64,000 nt of DNA, taken from positions 124,001 to 188,000 of the forward strand of contig NZ_SNUJ01000003.1 of the NCBI RefSeq assembly GCF_012027395.1, given 5' to 3'. This stretch comes from Thermococcus sp. LS1. Lineage in GTDB: Archaea; Methanobacteriota_B; Thermococci; Thermococcales; Thermococcaceae. Under the pieces are notes generated by a model. That model searched no databases and was not told the origin of the DNA. It saw only the letters and a program-made list of their open reading frames with translations. The translations under genes and the position numbers were made by a program. How positions within the stretch are numbered: position 1 is the first letter of the stretch; each line of letters starts with the position of its first letter. Shown here one piece after another: positions 37,502 to 44,024 of this stretch.

Positions 37502-37786
37502 ATGCTCTGCGTGGCCCTCGCGGGCCTTATTTTTATTCCCCTCATCTTCTTCAACAGCCCATCTGTGTCCTGATCGGGGCTTTTTGACCGGCTCCCTCCT
37601 CTGACTGGCTGGATGAAGCTGGATAGGGAAGCGAACGGGACGTTCCTGAAACTTCACGTCGCTGTGACGCTCATGGCTTACTCCATCTTCGTGGCATGGC
37701 TCGTCACAGGCACGGTAACCCTTGGCTTCGCATTCTTTGAGGTCTGGTGGATGGCAGTAGTCTTTGGTGTTCTGAGGAACTACTGA
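37502..37786 (+). pseudogene. Decayed small membrane-protein gene after the ABC exporter
   Basis: From ATG 37502 the frame reads MLCVALAGLIFIPLIFFNSP, then hits TGA at 37571-37573. It continues in the same frame (SGLFDRLPPLTGWMKLDREANG) through two hydrophobic segments ending VFGVLRNY at 37786. The second part reads too well as a membrane protein to be random. So this is a gene with one in-frame stop, or a short protein starting inside at 37613. It overlaps the pgk tail by 7 nt. A membrane accessory for the exporter is a guess. Confidence 0.5.
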
Positions 37787-39024
37787 GCTTTTCTTTCTAT
37801 TTTGTCCTTAAACCTCTCGTAGCTTATCCTGAACGCCTCCAGAACCGGAAGCTTCTCGCCGGCGAAGAAGCTCAGCATAGCCCCTCCGCCCGTCGACACG
37901 TGGCTTATGCCGGTTATATTGTACTGGTAGATGCTGGCTATTGAGTGCCCACCGCCGACAACCGAGAAAGCCGGGCTCTTTCCAATCGCCCTGAAGACCC
38001 CGACCGTTCCGACGGCGAACTCCTCCTGCTCAAAGACGCCCATCGGCCCGTTGGCGACTATCACCTTTGCCTTCATGAGAACCTCACGGTACTTTTCCAC
38101 GGTTCTCGAGCCAATATCGAGTATAGGATACTCGTCGAAGAGCCACTTCTCGTCGCTGAGGAGATCAACCTCAACCCGCTCGCCCTTGTAATCGACCGCA
38201 AAATCTACTGGAGTCCTCACGTAGGGATAGAACTCGTCGAGTATCTTCTCTGCCCAATCGACCAGCTCCAGAAGGCCCTTCTTAGTCATGAACTCGAGGT
38301 TGGCATCGCCGAGGTGGAAGCCCTTGGCGAGCGTAAAGACGTGGCCGACCAATCCACCCGTGAGGATTAGGTCTGCCCTTCCATTTCTGAGGACGTTCTC
38401 GGCCACGCGGAGGGAGTCGTCAACTTTGGCCCCACCGAGGACGTAAATCCTCGGCTTTTCGTCTGTCTCATATGCCCTGCTGAGGGCTTCAACTTCCTTC
38501 GCCATAAGAAAGCCCATTATCATCGGCTTCAACCGGGCGAATCCTACAAGGGATGGCTGACTTCTGTGAGCGGCTGCGAAAGCATCGTTAACGACGTAAT
38601 CTAAGAGCGGAGCAAGCTTTCTCACGAAGTGAGTTCTCTCACACTCCTCCAGGGACTTGTATTTGACATCCTCGGCAGCGAAGCGCAGGTTTTCGAGGAT
38701 TATCGCCTCGCCCGGCTTTAGCGCCTTTATTCTCTCTCTCGCATACTTTCCAAAGATATCCTCGACGTACTCAACCTCCTGGCCGAGGAGATTGCTCAGG
38801 ATTTCGGCGTGCTGCTCCGTGGTGATATAGTCACCTTTGTATGGCTTGCTCTGGTGGGTTCCGATGACGAGCTTCGCGCCTTCGTCCAGGAGGTGCCGGA
38901 TCGTCGGCAGAACAGCCCGAAAGCGAGCGTCGCTGATTATCATCCCATCTTTGACCGGTGAGTTGAGGTCGGCCCTCAGAAAGATGGTTTTGCCGTGATA
39001 GGTGAAGTCTGTGAGCCTGAACAT
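37780..39024 (-). CDS. pgk: Phosphoglycerate kinase
   Basis: Interconverts 1,3-bisphosphoglycerate and 3-phosphoglycerate; in Thermococcales it works mainly in gluconeogenesis because GAPOR bypasses it in glycolysis. The 414-aa product has IFLRADLNSPVKDG near 14, GTHQSKPYKGD near 55, ILENLRFAAED near 108, VNDAFAAAHRSQPS near 145, YVLGGAKVDDSL near 195 and the C-terminal STGGGAMLSFFAGEKLPVLEAF. The nucleotide site is intact. ATG 39024 follows GGTGAT. A TGM-like site lies upstream of the TATA box, as for genes activated by Tgr. Confidence 0.96.
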   Translation of the reverse strand: MFRLTDFTYHGKTIFLRADLNSPVKDGMIISDARFRAVLPTIRHLLDEGAKLVIGTHQSKPYKGDYITTEQHAEILSNLLGQEVEYVEDIFGKYARERIKALKPGEAIILENLRFAAEDVKYKSLEECERTHFVRKLAPLLDYVVNDAFAAAHRSQPSLVGFARLKPMIMGFLMAKEVEALSRAYETDEKPRIYVLGGAKVDDSLRVAENVLRNGRADLILTGGLVGHVFTLAKGFHLGDANLEFMTKKGLLELVDWAEKILDEFYPYVRTPVDFAVDYKGERVEVDLLSDEKWLFDEYPILDIGSRTVEKYREVLMKAKVIVANGPMGVFEQEEFAVGTVGVFRAIGKSPAFSVVGGGHSIASIYQYNITGISHVSTGGGAMLSFFAGEKLPVLEAFRISYERFKDKIERKAQ

Positions 39025-39089: not shown

Positions 39090-39168
39090 ACGAATTCCGG
39101 GGGAAAGAAATTTATAAAATGACCCCCAAATGATTTTAGTGACAGATTTTCGCTTATGGGTGAGAATG

Positions 39169-41307
39169 ATGGCGTGGACCCTTGATCTAATAAGGCTCAC
39201 ACCGGAAGAAACTCTTATCGAGAACGTCATTGAGCTACTGAAGAGAATGGGCTTCAGGAACTACGAGAAGGTCGCAAGCAGGAAAGACTGGGGAATCGAC
39301 ATCGTGGCCATACGTGATGACCCCATCTCTGGAACCGAGAAGCTCGTCATAGCAGTCCATCGTAAGGGATTGGCCGCTTCCCGTGACGTTAACGTTTTTG
39401 CAGATCTGGCTGACAAGTACAAGGCCGACAAGGGAATCTTAATCTCGACGACCGGCTTCACGAAGGATGCCAAGGTTCTCATATCCCGGGAGTACCGGGG
39501 AAGGATAATCCCCTGGGATGGGGAGAAACTTGTTTCCCTTTTCCACAACTACTCCATAGAACCTCCGGCCGAGCTCGTTGAGATGGCCGCGGCCCAAAAG
39601 AGGGGGCAGAAAAAAGAGAGCCCTCTCAAGGAGTTTGAGCTCGACGCTCCGCTGCTCTATGACTTCTCCGCAGAGGGACTCATGAAGAGGGTAGCTTCCT
39701 TCGCCTCTTCCATGTATCCGATAAAGGCCGGTGAGATTGAGCTCCGGTCCCTCTCGGTTACCCTCTCGAGTGCATACATATTCTCCTGGTCCGTTGAGGA
39801 GGGAGGGGATAAGGATAAGGCCGTTGTCTTCTCGCCGGAGAACATTGTCCTGAGGGCAACCTCACACAAGAAGCTCCGCGTTCCAGTAACCAAAGCACTT
39901 CTCGACGACCGCTCCATAATACGGGCTACCGAGAGAGAAATAGAGGTTCCCATAAGCCCCAGCGAGGCGGTGCTCGTACTCAAATCAAGGGCCTCGCGGG
40001 AGCTGGACGTCCCGGAAGGGAAGATAGTAATCCACGAGAGGAAGAAGGTCTACATACCCAAAATGGCAGAACTCGAACTTAAAGTCGGTGAAAACACCGC
40101 GAAGGCCGTGGTAAACCTCGAGAACAATGAGATCGAGTTTCACATAACTCCGCTCTCCGATGAATACTTCCTTGAGAAGGCGAGGGGAATAATCAGTGAA
40201 CAGACCGGAGAAAAGACCGTCGAGCTTGACCTGAAGAGGGACAAAGGAAAGGTAAAGATCACCGGATGGACCGAGAGGTTTTCATTCGAAGTCTCGTTCA
40301 ACGGCTACACAGGCAAGCCGCTTGGTGTGGAGGTTTTGATGAACGACGAGGCTCTCGATGAACTTCTGAGAAGGGCATACCCTGACGGGGAGGTTCTGAA
40401 CCTGGAGAAGGGTAAGAAGGTTGCCGTGGCTAACATCCTCCTTGGAGACGGCATAGCCGTCGTTGAGGTTGACCTTACGAGAGGGAGCTACACTGAAGTA
40501 AGAAGGCTGCCTTCACCGGAGGAAGCCTACAAGAATGCCAGGGAGGTCATAGAGAACAACTTCCCCCTAGGGAACCTCGAACTTAAATCCTACTGGGTGC
40601 TGGAACACAAGTACCTTGAGCTGATCCTTGAAAGTGGCGATGGGAAGGCCGTCGTGAAAGTTGACGGTGCGACGGGTGATGTTCTCGACTACATCGTCGA
40701 GATAACGCCGGAGCGGGCAAAGGAGATAGTGGCGGAGAAGTACCCGGAGTTCGGGATAACAGCCGTTGAAGAGGCAGAAGCTGAATACACCATAACCGCT
40801 GAGAACGACAGACATGAGGTGAAGATACGGGTCAGTAAGGACGGAAAACTCATCGAAGAGATAGACAGGGTGCTCAAAAGGGAGCTCGCCGAAAATATAG
40901 CGGGGGAAAAGGTCAGGGAGGTAGATCCCGAGGCTGCCATTAAGGGTATCAAACTCCGTGAGCACTGGGAGGTTGAGTTCACTGGTGGGACGAAGGTAGG
41001 AAAGCTCGTGCTCCATAGGGCTACTGGGGAGGTCCTCAGCCAGGACGTCCGCTTCACGGAGATGGCAATAGAGGCAATGTATCACAACCACGTCAGAAAA
41101 GTTTACGGTGAAAAAGAGCCAAAGACCGAGAGGGTGACCCACTACAAGGACAGGGGCTACATCAACATCAAGCTCTCAGGAAAAGACCGGTTCTACTACG
41201 CGAGAATCGACACCAGAACGGGGAGAATAATCAGTGAGGACACGGCGCCAATAAAGGGAATAACAGCAAAGCTAAAGCAGATTCAGCTGGAGAGCAGGTA
41301 CAAGTGA
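39169..41307 (+). CDS. Mrr-like nuclease-fold protein with PepSY-like C-terminal repeats
   Basis: A 712-aa protein with an odd make-up. Residues ~10-110 look like an Mrr/restriction endonuclease fold: LIENVIELLKRMGF, Asp44 in WGIDIVAI, and VIAVHRKG with Lys66. The usual Glu/Gln two before that Lys is His64. ADKGILISTTGFTKDAK follows, as in Mrr proteins. From ~180 on come repeated beta-rich units, several ending TGKPLG, TGDVLD, TGEVLS, TGRIIS with long alternating strands, like PepSY modules. No signal peptide is seen, so it is probably cytosolic. ATG 39169 follows GGGTGAG. It is divergent from pgk. Function unknown. Confidence 0.75.
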   Translation: MAWTLDLIRLTPEETLIENVIELLKRMGFRNYEKVASRKDWGIDIVAIRDDPISGTEKLVIAVHRKGLAASRDVNVFADLADKYKADKGILISTTGFTKDAKVLISREYRGRIIPWDGEKLVSLFHNYSIEPPAELVEMAAAQKRGQKKESPLKEFELDAPLLYDFSAEGLMKRVASFASSMYPIKAGEIELRSLSVTLSSAYIFSWSVEEGGDKDKAVVFSPENIVLRATSHKKLRVPVTKALLDDRSIIRATEREIEVPISPSEAVLVLKSRASRELDVPEGKIVIHERKKVYIPKMAELELKVGENTAKAVVNLENNEIEFHITPLSDEYFLEKARGIISEQTGEKTVELDLKRDKGKVKITGWTERFSFEVSFNGYTGKPLGVEVLMNDEALDELLRRAYPDGEVLNLEKGKKVAVANILLGDGIAVVEVDLTRGSYTEVRRLPSPEEAYKNAREVIENNFPLGNLELKSYWVLEHKYLELILESGDGKAVVKVDGATGDVLDYIVEITPERAKEIVAEKYPEFGITAVEEAEAEYTITAENDRHEVKIRVSKDGKLIEEIDRVLKRELAENIAGEKVREVDPEAAIKGIKLREHWEVEFTGGTKVGKLVLHRATGEVLSQDVRFTEMAIEAMYHNHVRKVYGEKEPKTERVTHYKDRGYINIKLSGKDRFYYARIDTRTGRIISEDTAPIKGITAKLKQIQLESRYK

Positions 41308-41931
41308 TCAGGCCATCAACATGTTCTCTATCATCCTGATGGCTTCCACTATTTTCCTTTCTGGCTTCTCCTCGTTCTTGGGTATCTCCAGGTTTATAAC
41401 GAGCCTATCTTCCTTAGTGTCCTCCAAGTCGTATATCTCGAGCTCCTCGACCTCAACGTCCTCGAATATGCTCTCTATCTCCGGGCTTATTATCTTCTTG
41501 TCGTTCCCGTAGACTTCAACGCGAACCATGTCGTCAGTGGTTGAAGCAACGACGACTATCTCGTAGGAACCGACCTTCTTTATGAATCTGATGACACTGC
41601 CGTAGCCTTCTACCTCCTCTTTGAAGCCGAGCTGACGCATGGTGCTCCTTATGGCTTCAGTCTTGCTCTTTATCCTGTTAAGAATTCTCTCCCGGAGCTT
41701 GTAGCTCTCCTCGAGAGCCTTCTTTATCCCCTCGCCGGCTTCATCAACTGTACCTTCCCATATGCCTATGACCTTTATACCTGATGATGTTGGCTTGAGT
41801 TCTATCTTAATTGAATCGATATCAAAGTCTCGCAGGTCGTCTATTTTAAGCTCGCCGAGGGTGAGAATTTCAAATTCAATTCTCACGATGTTGCCGAAGG
41901 CCTTACCCTTGAACTTCACCTTCACCACCAT
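41308..41931 (-). CDS. Conserved hypothetical protein, Thermococcales-type
   Basis: A 207-aa protein not tied to a named family. The first half is beta-rich (KVKFKGKAFGNIVRIEFEI), the middle is helical (IKKALEESYKLRERILNRI) and the tail is acidic/basic (EEKPERKIVEAIRMIEN). ATG 41931 is ~22 bp after TTTTTAAAC, so it is probably leaderless; there is no ribosome binding site. It meets the preceding gene tail to tail with no gap. Confidence 0.65.
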   Translation of the reverse strand: MVVKVKFKGKAFGNIVRIEFEILTLGELKIDDLRDFDIDSIKIELKPTSSGIKVIGIWEGTVDEAGEGIKKALEESYKLRERILNRIKSKTEAIRSTMRQLGFKEEVEGYGSVIRFIKKVGSYEIVVVASTTDDMVRVEVYGNDKKIISPEIESIFEDVEVEELEIYDLEDTKEDRLVINLEIPKNEEKPERKIVEAIRMIENMLMA

Positions 41932-42021: not shown

Positions 42022-44024
42022 TCACTTCCTCCTCCTGAGGAGGAGTGGAACAAGCGCCAGACCAACAAGTGCGGCCGGGCCGCAGGTGCTTCCGGTGGAA
42101 CTGGGGGTGGTAGTGGTTGTAGTCGTGCCGGTGCTCGAGTAGGTGTACTCAGTTTCTCCAGTATTGCCATAGAAGTCTGTGGCTATAACCTTGATGGTGA
42201 AGCTTTCGGAGTCAACACCCGGAATTTCGGTGAAGTATGTCGCCTTGACCTCGGATGGCTTCATTGAGAACGCTGGATACTCTGCGACTACTTTTCCATC
42301 GACAATAATCTGCACCTTCATGTCCTTAATTCCGACGTTGTCGTTGGCACTGATGTAGACCTTGAATGCCTGTCCTGGCTTGGGCTTGCTTGGTGAGAGG
42401 TAGCCTATGCTCACCTCGGGAGCTTTGGTGTCGGCTTCCTTGACGACCGTTATCTGGCTGACTCCCTCCGGGACGGTAACGTTGAGGAGCATGTAGTAGG
42501 CTCCGCCTATTTCTCTCTCGCCGAGAACGGTGTAGGTTATGTTGGTGGCCTGCGGGTCGACCTTGGCACCGGCGGGAATCTCAAGGACTATCGGTCCGCT
42601 GACGCTCTGGCCGAGCTCGTTGATGAACTTGACGGCGGTTCCCTCTTCACCATTCTGCCTGAAGACGATGAACTTCTGCGGAATTGGGAGGGAGATGATC
42701 TTGTCCTCGGCGAATAGGTCGTCCACAAGCGGGAACTCAACCTTTCCGTCTGAGTAGACGTAGATTACCTGTGAACATACCATGAAGGCTTGGTGTATCC
42801 TCTGTTTATGTCAGTCTGGCTCGGCGGGTTGCTGGTCTTGTCTGGGGCACCGGTGGTGGTAAGGGCATAGAACCAGTGCTCGTTGCCGTCCTTATCGATG
42901 TAGAGGACGGGCTTGTCCTTGTGTATGTGTCCGCTGAGGATGAGCCTGACGTTGTACTTCTCAACGAGCTGGAGGAAGTACCTTGCTATGTCCTCGTACT
43001 CGCCGTTCCTTCCAACCCAGTCCCAGCTGGCGAGCTTCTTTATCTGCTGCCAGTCGTTGTCGTCGAAGGCAGTGAGGTTCTCAACGACTCCTCCTTCGTA
43101 TCTGCTTATGTACCAGAACGGGTGGTGGACGAGGACTATCGGTATCTTGTCCGGGTGCTCCTTGAGGACCTGCTCCATCCACTGAAGCTGCTCCATTTCG
43201 GGGTGCCTCTCCTCGCCACGGCTGTCGAGGCCGATGATTATGAAGTCTCCGATGACCTCGTAGAAGTACCGTGGACCGACGTACTGGAGGTAGTAGGTCG
43301 GCGGGTGGTCGTGGTTGCCCTTTACGCTTATGAAGGGCGTTCCAGCAGCTGTGGCGTAGGTTATGGCCTGGTCGAGCATCTCATAACCGGCCCTGTCTCC
43401 GTTGGTGTCGACATCGTCACCTGTAGCGAGGATAATGTTCACAATGTTCTCTCCATTCGAGCCCACCATTGCGTAGTACGTCATGAAGCTGTCGGTAGCG
43501 GTGTAGCTGTGCATCGGTATTGGGTTCTGGCAGTACTTGAGTATCTCGGTGATGCTCTTCTGGAAGTAGTCGCCGCAGACGAAACCCATCTTTGAACCGC
43601 TCGTGACGTGGAAGTCACTTCCCTGGGCTATTCTGAGAACTGTTGGGGCCTCCTTCATGACCCATACGCCGTTGGGTATGGTCACCTCACCTTTGTCGCT
43701 CTTGACAACGAGGAAGTAGACATCTGGAGCAGCATCCTCAGGTATTCTGGCCTTAACTACTCCGCTCTCTGTGCCCAGTATCTGCAGGTCGTAAGGCCCG
43801 TGTAGAATTGAGATTATCTGGAGGCTCTGGATTGTAACTCCTTCGACGGGGTAGATTTCAATGGTGTCCCCTGGAAAGCCAATAGCTGGGACTCCGGGGA
43901 GAGGCTTTACAAGAACGTCTCCAGGGGCCAGGCCGGTGGGTGTTGCTGCCCAAACGTTTGTCGTTGGAATTGCTGCTAAGGTGAAAAGAGCCATCAACAG
44001 GGCTATTATTCTTTTGCCCAGCAT
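42022..44024 (-). CDS. Secreted metallophosphoesterase with CGP-CTERM tail, frameshifted
   Basis: A calcineurin-like phosphoesterase exported by a signal peptide (RIIALLMALFTLAAIPTTNVWA). Metal motifs are GSDFHVTSG near 135 (D-x-H), LATGDDVDTNGD near 200, VKGNHDHPP near 232 and LVHHPFWY, LSGHIHKDKP near 300-365. The frame breaks near 42765-42790 after GYTKPSWY. In the next frame VIYVYSDGKVEF continues an Ig-like domain and ends with a Thr-rich linker and TCGPAALVGLA...LLLRRRK, the CGP-CTERM sorting signal of Thermococcales. So two adjacent ORFs are one gene with a 1-base deletion. ATG 44024 follows GGTGAT. An inverted repeat surrounds its TATA box. Confidence 0.88.

What the first reader, a model, noticed from the sequence alone, without database searches (positions are those of the whole stretch)
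39169..41307. Mrr-like nuclease fold joined to long PepSY-like repeats
A restriction-endonuclease-like head (Asp44, Lys66, with His64 where Glu/Gln is usual) is followed by ~530 residues of repeated beta-rich units ending in TG-x-x-[LI] turns. PepSY modules are normally outside cells as peptidase inhibitors, so this cytosolic mix looks new. It might be a DNA-sensing or defence protein whose repeats bind DNA, peptide or a partner.
Basis: partly seen in the sequence, partly recalled or inferred. Interest (0 to 1): 0.7.

Follow-up and report, generated by a model that had tools for sequence, protein, structure and literature searches.

The report
Degenerate nuclease fused to PepSY array
A hyperthermophilic archaeon carries an apparently cytosolic protein that joins a worn-down, probably inactive DNA-cutting domain to a chain of eight small binding modules usually found outside cells; it is an inherited family of unknown function, with no sign that it is an antivirus weapon.

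Summary
The ORF (best start 39169, 712 aa) has an N-terminal Mrr-type PD-(D/E)xK domain (Pfam E 1.8e-16; head model closest to AF1548 and EndoMS), then eight alpha-beta4 units of PepSY type (modelled mostly at pLDDT 80-92; the unit profile's three best solved-structure matches are PepSY-like or PepSY proteins) and a C-terminal helix.

Alignment to canonical Mrr proteins places the catalytic Q-x-K at residues 62/64, not 64/66. Asp44 is kept (48 of 49 homologues), residue 62 is never D/E/Q (0 of 49), residue 64 is Lys in 10 and His in 39. The head is probably non-catalytic, yet under stronger purifying selection than the tail.

The gene is vertically inherited and found only in Thermococcaceae (full length in 58 of 94 genomes). 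It mostly sits between phosphoglycerate kinase and a near-universal 207-aa gene, not in a defence island, and is repeatedly lost or broken. A paralogue in 16 genomes keeps the repeats but has no recognisable nuclease motif. Best reading: a cytosolic pseudo-nuclease/PepSY adaptor whose repeats bind a partner. I found no description of this architecture; the function is inferred.

The parts
39111..39118 (+). TATA-like box TTTATAAA upstream of the gene
   Evidence: sequence; archaeal promoter assignment is inference
39159..39163 (+). Shine-Dalgarno-like GGTGA, 5 nt before ATG 39169
   Evidence: sequence
39169..41307 (+). Complete gene, 712 aa: degenerate Mrr-type head + eight PepSY-type units + C-terminal helix
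39169..39588 (+). Head, residues 1-140: PD-(D/E)xK fold of Mrr type; Asp44 kept, Ala62/His64 at the canonical Q/E and K positions
39640..39657 (+). LDAPLL motif (residues 158-163) between head and repeats; L158, D159 and P161 identical in 30 of 30 A and 13 of 13 B proteins
39664..39861 (+). PepSY-type unit U1 (residues 166-231); low model confidence in its second half
39952..40152 (+). PepSY-type unit U2 (residues 262-328)
40153..40341 (+). PepSY-type unit U3 (residues 329-391); Pfam PepSY hits the equivalent unit in L059
40342..40509 (+). PepSY-type unit U4 (residues 392-447)
40510..40704 (+). PepSY-type unit U5 (residues 448-512); Pfam PepSY hits the equivalent unit in L053
40705..40875 (+). 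PepSY-type unit U6 (residues 513-569); sub-threshold Pfam PepSY and PepSY_like hit in the window protein itself
40876..41055 (+). PepSY-type unit U7 (residues 570-629); Pfam PepSY E 7.8e-9 in L076, best stretch in the equivalent unit
41056..41250 (+). PepSY-type unit U8 (residues 630-694); Pfam PepSY best stretch in the equivalent unit of L044, L045, L046, L048, L052
41260..41301 (+). C-terminal helix, residues 698-711; Tyr711 invariant in 30 of 30 A and 13 of 13 B proteins
37780..39024 (-). Flank: phosphoglycerate kinase, divergent; next to the gene in 26 of 28 flanked homologous loci
41308..41931 (-). Flank: 207-aa conserved protein of unknown function, convergent, stop codons abutting; next to the gene in 22 of 28 loci, present in 91 of 94 family genomes

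Best explanation
A vertically inherited, accessory cytosolic protein of Thermococcaceae whose head is a restriction-endonuclease fold that has lost its cutting motif and is kept as a binding module (for nucleic acid or a protein), carried on an array of eight PepSY-type units that bind and restrain or hold a partner protein, as PepSY domains are thought to do outside cells. Shown here: the fold assignments (by profile and model), loss of the D/E/Q-x-K motif, stronger selection on head than on tail, fixed locus, restriction to the family among the genomes searched, and a paralogue whose head has degenerated further while its repeats persist. Inferred: that the head no longer cuts, that it still binds something, that the repeats hold a partner, and that the protein acts as an adaptor or inhibitor in the cytosol.
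For: Head fold: Mrr_cat in 26 of 26; head model against AF1548 1y88 Z 9.5, rmsd 5.8, 121 aligned; EndoMS 5gkj Z 9.0, rmsd 3.2, 102 aligned; Rpb5 7vba_E (recalled to be a non-cutting member of this fold) Z 8.1, rmsd 2.8, 98 aligned. Motif: register from canonical Mrr proteins with Q-A-K; residue 62 A24 K20 L3 R1 S1 of 49, residue 64 H39 K10, residue 66 K27, Asp44 48 of 49. The Lys/His state at 64 needs one change on the tree, so His64 is stably held in its clade. Repeats; PepSY at E<=0.1 in 18 of 26 A and 7 of 13 B proteins, in five different units across members; unit profile's three best solved-structure hits 3db7 (E 0.0015), 3due (0.0016) and 9vy3, a PepSY propeptide (0.011). Selection: median dN/dS 0.051 head, 0.096 tail over 60 non-independent pairs. 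Paralogue B: Mrr_cat in 0 of 13, Asp44 kept in 0 of 13, key residues of the repeats kept. Locus.
Against: Ten of 49 members keep Lys at 64, and some true nucleases lack the usual lysine (recalled), so cutting is not excluded. Stronger constraint on the head than on the tail sits awkwardly with the repeats being the main working part. The head model has low confidence (mean pLDDT 58.2), and the best hits of the whole-protein model were propeller blades, not PepSY proteins. Pfam PepSY is below its cut-off in the window protein itself (19.6 against 24 bits). No partner, localisation or binding data exist; head and tail are acidic (calculated pI 6.1 and 5.5), which does not favour non-specific DNA binding.
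Confidence: 0.5

Rival explanations
1. A working nuclease with an unusual active site (Asp44, Glu57, Lys58, His/Lys64, sometimes Lys62 or Lys66) that cuts or nicks DNA, with the repeats as sensor: the first reader's defence reading.
For: Asp44 in 48 of 49; Glu57 and Lys58 in 49 of 49; some Lys at 62, 64 or 66 in 44 of 49; strong purifying selection on the head; PADLOC matches of the head to type IV restriction models and PDC-S02, best E 9.9e-9.
Against: D/E/Q at residue 62 in 0 of 49, Lys64 in 10 of 49, Lys66 in 27 of 49 with Asp, Glu or Gly in 16 of 49; fixed housekeeping locus, vertical tree, no relative found in the viral contigs.
Confidence: 0.15
2. A cytosolic protease or enzyme inhibitor: the PepSY array is the active part and the head only an oligomerisation or localisation device.
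For: PepSY domains are postulated peptidase inhibitors or partners of a lytic enzyme (passages of PMC2954215, and PMC6660665); paralogue B keeps the array with a head lacking all recognisable motifs and has an alpha/beta hydrolase of the S33-like group in all 13 of its fetched loci.
Against: No peptidase among the A-locus neighbours scanned; the hydrolase link of B is untested; the head is the more constrained part in A.
Confidence: 0.2
3. A structural or nucleoid-related protein whose repeats hold DNA or chromatin proteins, or a decaying relic of an ancient type IV restriction enzyme without present function.
For: Repeated loss: full length in 58 of 94 genomes, broken or split in 5.
Against: Median dN/dS of 0.051 and 0.096 for the two parts argues against a relic; no charge bias for DNA binding.
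Confidence: 0.15

Closest known systems
Mrr_cat (PF04471), type IV restriction enzymes such as E. coli Mrr, MspJI, AspBHI
   Same: Domain of the same family by profile (E 1.8e-16) and similar fold (AspBHI 4oc8 Z 7.1, rmsd 4.3, 127 aligned; MspJI 4f0q Z 5.9, rmsd 4.4, 123 aligned); keeps the Asp of the motif and the F-T-K-D-A segment.
   Different: Lacks D/E/Q-x-K (0 of 49), has no match to a DNA-recognition domain, and is fused to PepSY-type repeats instead.
NA-iREase1 (PF22722), NACHT-associated inactive restriction endonuclease
   Same: Second-best Pfam match, 26 of 26 members at E<=0.1; 26.9 bits in the window protein against a cut-off of 27, above it in 4 of the 10 members (L031, L044, L055, L059). 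Named inactive as well.
   Different: No NACHT match in the protein or in the neighbours scanned.
PepSY (PF03413) and PepSY_like (PF11396, DUF2874)
   Same: Same unit layout of a helix with four strands, similar G-x-[LIV] end, remote profile matches in several units.
   Different: Eight units in one protein without a signal peptide; DUF2874 proteins hold one to four copies and are periplasmic (PMC2954215 passages).
EndoMS/NucS and the Rpb5 N-terminal domain
   Same: PD-(D/E)xK-type fold; EndoMS Z 9.0 (rmsd 3.2, 102 aligned), Rpb5 Z 8.1 (rmsd 2.8, 98 aligned).
   Different: Neither carries PepSY-type repeats (recalled). EndoMS is an active enzyme and Rpb5 a non-cutting use of the fold (both recalled).

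Membership tests
Mrr-type (type IV) restriction endonuclease | Mrr_cat domain / PD-(D/E)xK fold | tested here: met
   Pfam 60.7 bits against cut-off 21; 26 of 26 members; fold matches
Mrr-type (type IV) restriction endonuclease | Catalytic (D/E)...(D/E/Q)xK (as given in PMC3874153) | tested here: not met
Mrr-type (type IV) restriction endonuclease | Accompanying DNA-recognition domain (Mrr_N, SRA, wHTH) | tested here: not met
   No such Pfam match at E<=1 in the window protein nor among the families listed for 26 members at E<=0.1
Mrr-type (type IV) restriction endonuclease | Restricts modified DNA | not testable with these tools
   needs an experiment
Anti-phage defence gene | Lies in variable, mobile defence loci | tested here: not met
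   Fixed pgk / 207-aa slot in 26 and 22 of 28 loci; vertical tree; no viral relative; PADLOC hits in 3 of 10 neighbours, all to generic ABC ATPases or a regulator
PepSY superfamily (repeats) | alpha-beta4 unit with PepSY profile match | tested here: met
   Topology in model; PepSY E<=0.1 in 18 of 26 A and 7 of 13 B proteins; three best unit-profile hits among PDB sequences 3db7, 3due and 9vy3. Sub-threshold in the window protein itself
PepSY superfamily (repeats) | Extracytosolic location (signal peptide or membrane anchor) | tested here: not met
   No N-terminal hydrophobic stretch; the only 19-residue window above 1.6 is at 418, inside predicted strands. The same genome has an ordinary PepSY protein with a hydrophobic N-terminal segment (L129)
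PepSY superfamily (repeats) | Binds or inhibits a partner protein | not testable with these tools
   needs pull-down or inhibition assay
NA-iREase1 | Profile match above cut-off | tested here: inconclusive
   26.9 bits against 27 in the window protein; above it in 4 of 10 members
NA-iREase1 | Associated with a NACHT NTPase | tested here: not met
   No NACHT match in the protein or in the neighbours scanned

The most novel reading that the evidence does not exclude
A cytosolic, nucleic-acid-tethered PepSY regulator: a nuclease fold converted to a non-cutting (perhaps DNA-end or RNA-binding) anchor that places an eight-unit PepSY array on the chromosome or on a nucleic-acid machine, where the array captures or inhibits a partner. 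It would be the first PepSY array that I know of to work inside the cell.
Probability: 0.25. Interest if true: 0.62.

Novelty: new variant of a known kind. Interest (0 to 1): 0.42.

Why it matters
It shows PepSY-type modules in a long array without export signals and joined to a nuclease fold, so the usual picture of PepSY as an envelope module is too narrow if the protein is confirmed as cytosolic. The A/B pair (head with Asp44 kept against head with no motif, same repeats) is a natural experiment for asking what a restriction-type fold does once it stops cutting. It also warns that automatic 'Mrr restriction endonuclease' labels on these Thermococcaceae genes, and defence annotations built on them, are probably wrong.

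Tried and rejected
Defence island: rejected on locus, tree and distribution. Of 10 neighbours scanned with PADLOC, 3 have hits at E<=0.001 (two ABC ATPases and a regulator), all generic in my judgement; 7 have none.

Functional link to the 207-aa neighbour: rejected. It is in 91 of 94 genomes, with or without our gene; our gene is full length in 58 of 94.

Lysine that moved along the strand (62, 64, 66): considered because Lys62 is common where Lys66 is absent. Of 49, 20 have Lys62; 5 of 49 have no Lys at any of the three positions, so no single replacement rule holds.

Beta-propeller: Foldseek and VIA-align on the whole-protein model list propeller proteins. The TM-scores shown are 0.07-0.14 with rmsd of 30 or more, the good local alignments cover one or two four-stranded sheets, and helices separate the sheets in the model; taken as blade-like similarity only. 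VIA-align listed a calcium-binding protein, 3u1w (that it is DUF2874-like is recalled), at Z 6.6 with rmsd 18.6 over 106 residues, too poor to use.

PCNA-binding box in the C-terminal helix: looked at by eye, spacing does not fit.

Relatives of the tail in other archaea: profile A5 gave 0 of 200, 0 of 16 and 0 of 114 genomes in three other phyla; the same profile finds 9 of 13 genomes near the window. Bacteria were not searched with it. Full-length profile: 58 of 99 genomes of the phylum, all inside the family, 0 of 17 outside it.

Literature: T. kodakarensis locus tags guessed from memory gave nothing. 'PepSY' with 'Thermococcus' gives one paper (passages read: a secreted PepSY-M4 protease family, not this gene); 'PepSY' with 'Mrr' gives three papers, unrelated by title (listing only). 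The source of the NA-iREase1 family was looked for in PMC7159879 and not found there under that name.

Full report
What is there. The frame 39130-41307 (+) is open for 725 codons. The protein is then 712 residues. The window lies in a genome of Thermococcaceae: the named relative L031 is a Thermococcus metagenome-assembled genome, and kinship codes put the other holders in the same genus and family.

Head. Residues 18-124 match Pfam Mrr_cat at 1.8e-16, and all 26 homologues scanned match. A two-sequence AlphaFold model of the head has low confidence (mean pLDDT 58.2), yet its best structural neighbours are mostly proteins known to me as PD-(D/E)xK folds: AF1548 (1y88, Z 9.5, rmsd 5.8, 121 aligned), EndoMS (5gkj, Z 9.0, rmsd 3.2, 102 aligned), Rpb5 (7vba_E, Z 8.1, rmsd 2.8, 98 aligned), EcoT38I (7e8r, Z 7.8, rmsd 6.1, 129 aligned), and further down Can2, BspD6I, AspBHI, FokI and MspJI. 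AF1548 is titled a protein of unknown function there; that it is Mrr-like is recalled.

Active site. I aligned a profile of the 49 heads with Mrr-type proteins from plasmids and from other archaea. Residue 62 falls on the canonical Gln and residue 64 on the canonical Lys in L131, L133, L134 and L127; L132 differs by one position and L128 is a weak match (E 0.034). Sequences from L135 and L136 did not match usefully. Across 49 heads: Asp44 48, Glu57 49, residue 62 A24 K20 L3 R1 S1, residue 64 H39 K10, residue 66 K27 G9 R6 D5 E2. In neither register is there a single sequence with D/E/Q-x-K. The change between Lys and His at 64 needs one step on the tree and separates three genera (g11, g13, g14) from the rest. 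That His64 is fixed in its clade suggests it does something, which I cannot name.

Tail. The model of the whole protein, made from two sequences, is confident from residue 300 onward (most ten-residue blocks 81-92 pLDDT) and poor before 165 and between 211 and 269. It shows one helix followed by four strands, repeated, then a short helix; U1 and U2 have three strands in the listing, one of them long. Profile self-comparison supports the repeats (E 7.6e-10 and 1.2e-9 for the best off-diagonal matches). Unit-against-unit probabilities reach 92.6% (U4/U6), 80.4% (U5/U7), 76.6% (U4/U8) and 72.0% (U3/U8); 17 of 28 pairs reach 5%, and 40 shuffled controls never exceeded 3.3%. Eleven pairs stay below 5%, so the count of eight rests on topology as much as on sequence. 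That the units are PepSY rests on three things: Pfam PepSY at E<=0.1 in 18 of 26 A proteins, best 7.8e-9, and in 7 of 13 B proteins; best stretches fall in U3, U5, U6, U7 and U8 in different members; and the unit profile's three best PDB sequences are 3db7, 3due (putative periplasmic proteins; that 3due is the BVU2987 structure of PMC2954215 is recalled) and 9vy3, a PepSY propeptide. In the window protein alone PepSY stays below its cut-off, and a six-frame Pfam PepSY search did not ring for this gene at E 0.001 in any of 11 genomes, so these are divergent members.

Distribution and descent. In 94 Thermococcaceae genomes, 58 hold a full-length copy (A), 5 hold broken or split copies (G030, G074, G076, G088, G105) and 1 (G002) holds only the paralogue B; 30 hold neither (counted by me from its rows). 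A profile search of 99 genomes of the phylum found 58 with matches, none of the 17 outside the family. The paralogue B, at 30-34% identity, occurs in 16 of the 94 genomes, all in the window's genus. The 13 B proteins fetched keep a domain of 124-127 residues aligned to the 140 of the head, but with no Mrr match (0 of 13), no Asp44 (0 of 13) and no residue aligned at 64, while key residues of the tail (Trp600, Phe604, Tyr676, Gly685, Tyr711) are identical in 13 of 13. On the A tree the groups need the least possible number of changes (5), though the two g12 copies are on long branches and lie at other places in their genomes (L049, L050).

Locus. In 28 A loci with flanks, phosphoglycerate kinase lies within 400 bases, divergent, in 26, and the 207-aa gene within 400 bases, convergent, in 22. 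In four more loci (L051, L052, L053, L080) another gene stands in its place. Of ten A-less genomes looked at, seven have pgk and the 207-aa gene side by side with 70-339 bases between them and no remnant found; in three the pair is not adjacent. The 207-aa gene is in 91 of 94 genomes, so it is not a partner that comes and goes with A. Adenylosuccinate synthetase occurs in 12 of 13 B loci and an S33-like alpha/beta hydrolase in 13 of 13 (cluster table; names from one member each). Neighbours in the window are a PadR-like regulator, ABC transporters, pgk, a metallophosphoesterase-like gene and DUF447: no defence cluster.

Selection. Over 60 pairs with 80-99.5% identity, median dN/dS is 0.051 for the head and 0.096 for the tail. 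The pairs are not independent, and two pairs with L018 show an inflated head dS that suggests recombination. Both parts are under purifying selection; the head is not a free-wheeling remnant.

How it most likely works. Shown: fold of the head, loss of its motif, PepSY-type array, no export signal, fixed and vertical gene, frequent loss. Known in general: PepSY domains outside cells are postulated to bind or inhibit partners (passages of PMC2954215, and PMC6660665; passages of PMC12714742, where a periplasmic PepSY protein interacts with a sensor kinase and the text says the exact function of the motif is unclear). Inferred: inside the archaeal cell the array grips a protein, and the head, like other non-cutting members of its fold, supplies binding or assembly. 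The paralogue B, which keeps the array but not the motif, favours the array as the shared function. The strong constraint on the A head argues that A adds something through its head, possibly nucleic-acid binding. I put 0.5 on the adaptor reading as a whole, less on each specific version.

Comparison. It is not a member of the type IV restriction enzymes: it has the domain but fails the catalytic test and has no recognisable recognition domain. It may still work like one part of them, by holding DNA. It is a member of the PepSY superfamily by unit layout and profile, but fails the usual location. It resembles NA-iREase1 by score and probable inactivity, without a NACHT partner. Papers: I saw search listings and passages of PMC12714742, PMC2954215, PMC7159879, PMC3874153, PMC4158269 and PMC6660665; I read none in whole. 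That this architecture is undescribed rests in an open-licence library only.

Noticed in passing
42022-44024 (-): A metallophosphoesterase-like gene is split into two ORFs with a frame break near 42774-42777; the close relative L061 has one 728-aa ORF and other relatives 654-695 aa. Either a frameshift in this strain or a sequencing error.
   Followed up: partly
41308-41931 (-): 207-aa protein of unknown function in 91 of 94 Thermococcaceae genomes, with only a sub-threshold NCBIfam match to RNA polymerase subunit L (E 0.0064). A near-universal family protein without a name.
   Followed up: partly
L018 (G036) against L017 and L039: The head region of L018 has synonymous divergence of 0.8-1.1 while the tail has 0.09-0.19, which suggests that the head was exchanged by recombination.
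   Followed up: no
L063-L075: Paralogue B in 16 of 94 genomes: same PepSY array, head without Mrr match; fixed near adenylosuccinate synthetase and an alpha/beta hydrolase.
   Followed up: partly
L129:1279-1794 (G000:C2:604077): The same genome has an ordinary single PepSY protein of 171 aa with a hydrophobic N-terminal segment (Pfam PepSY E 7.5e-17); it was not found in the ten relatives searched in that call.
   Followed up: no
39640-39657: The LDAPLL motif between head and repeats, in a stretch modelled with low confidence, is the segment most alike between A and B (48% mean identity over residues 153-165); it could be a docking or hinge motif.
   Followed up: no
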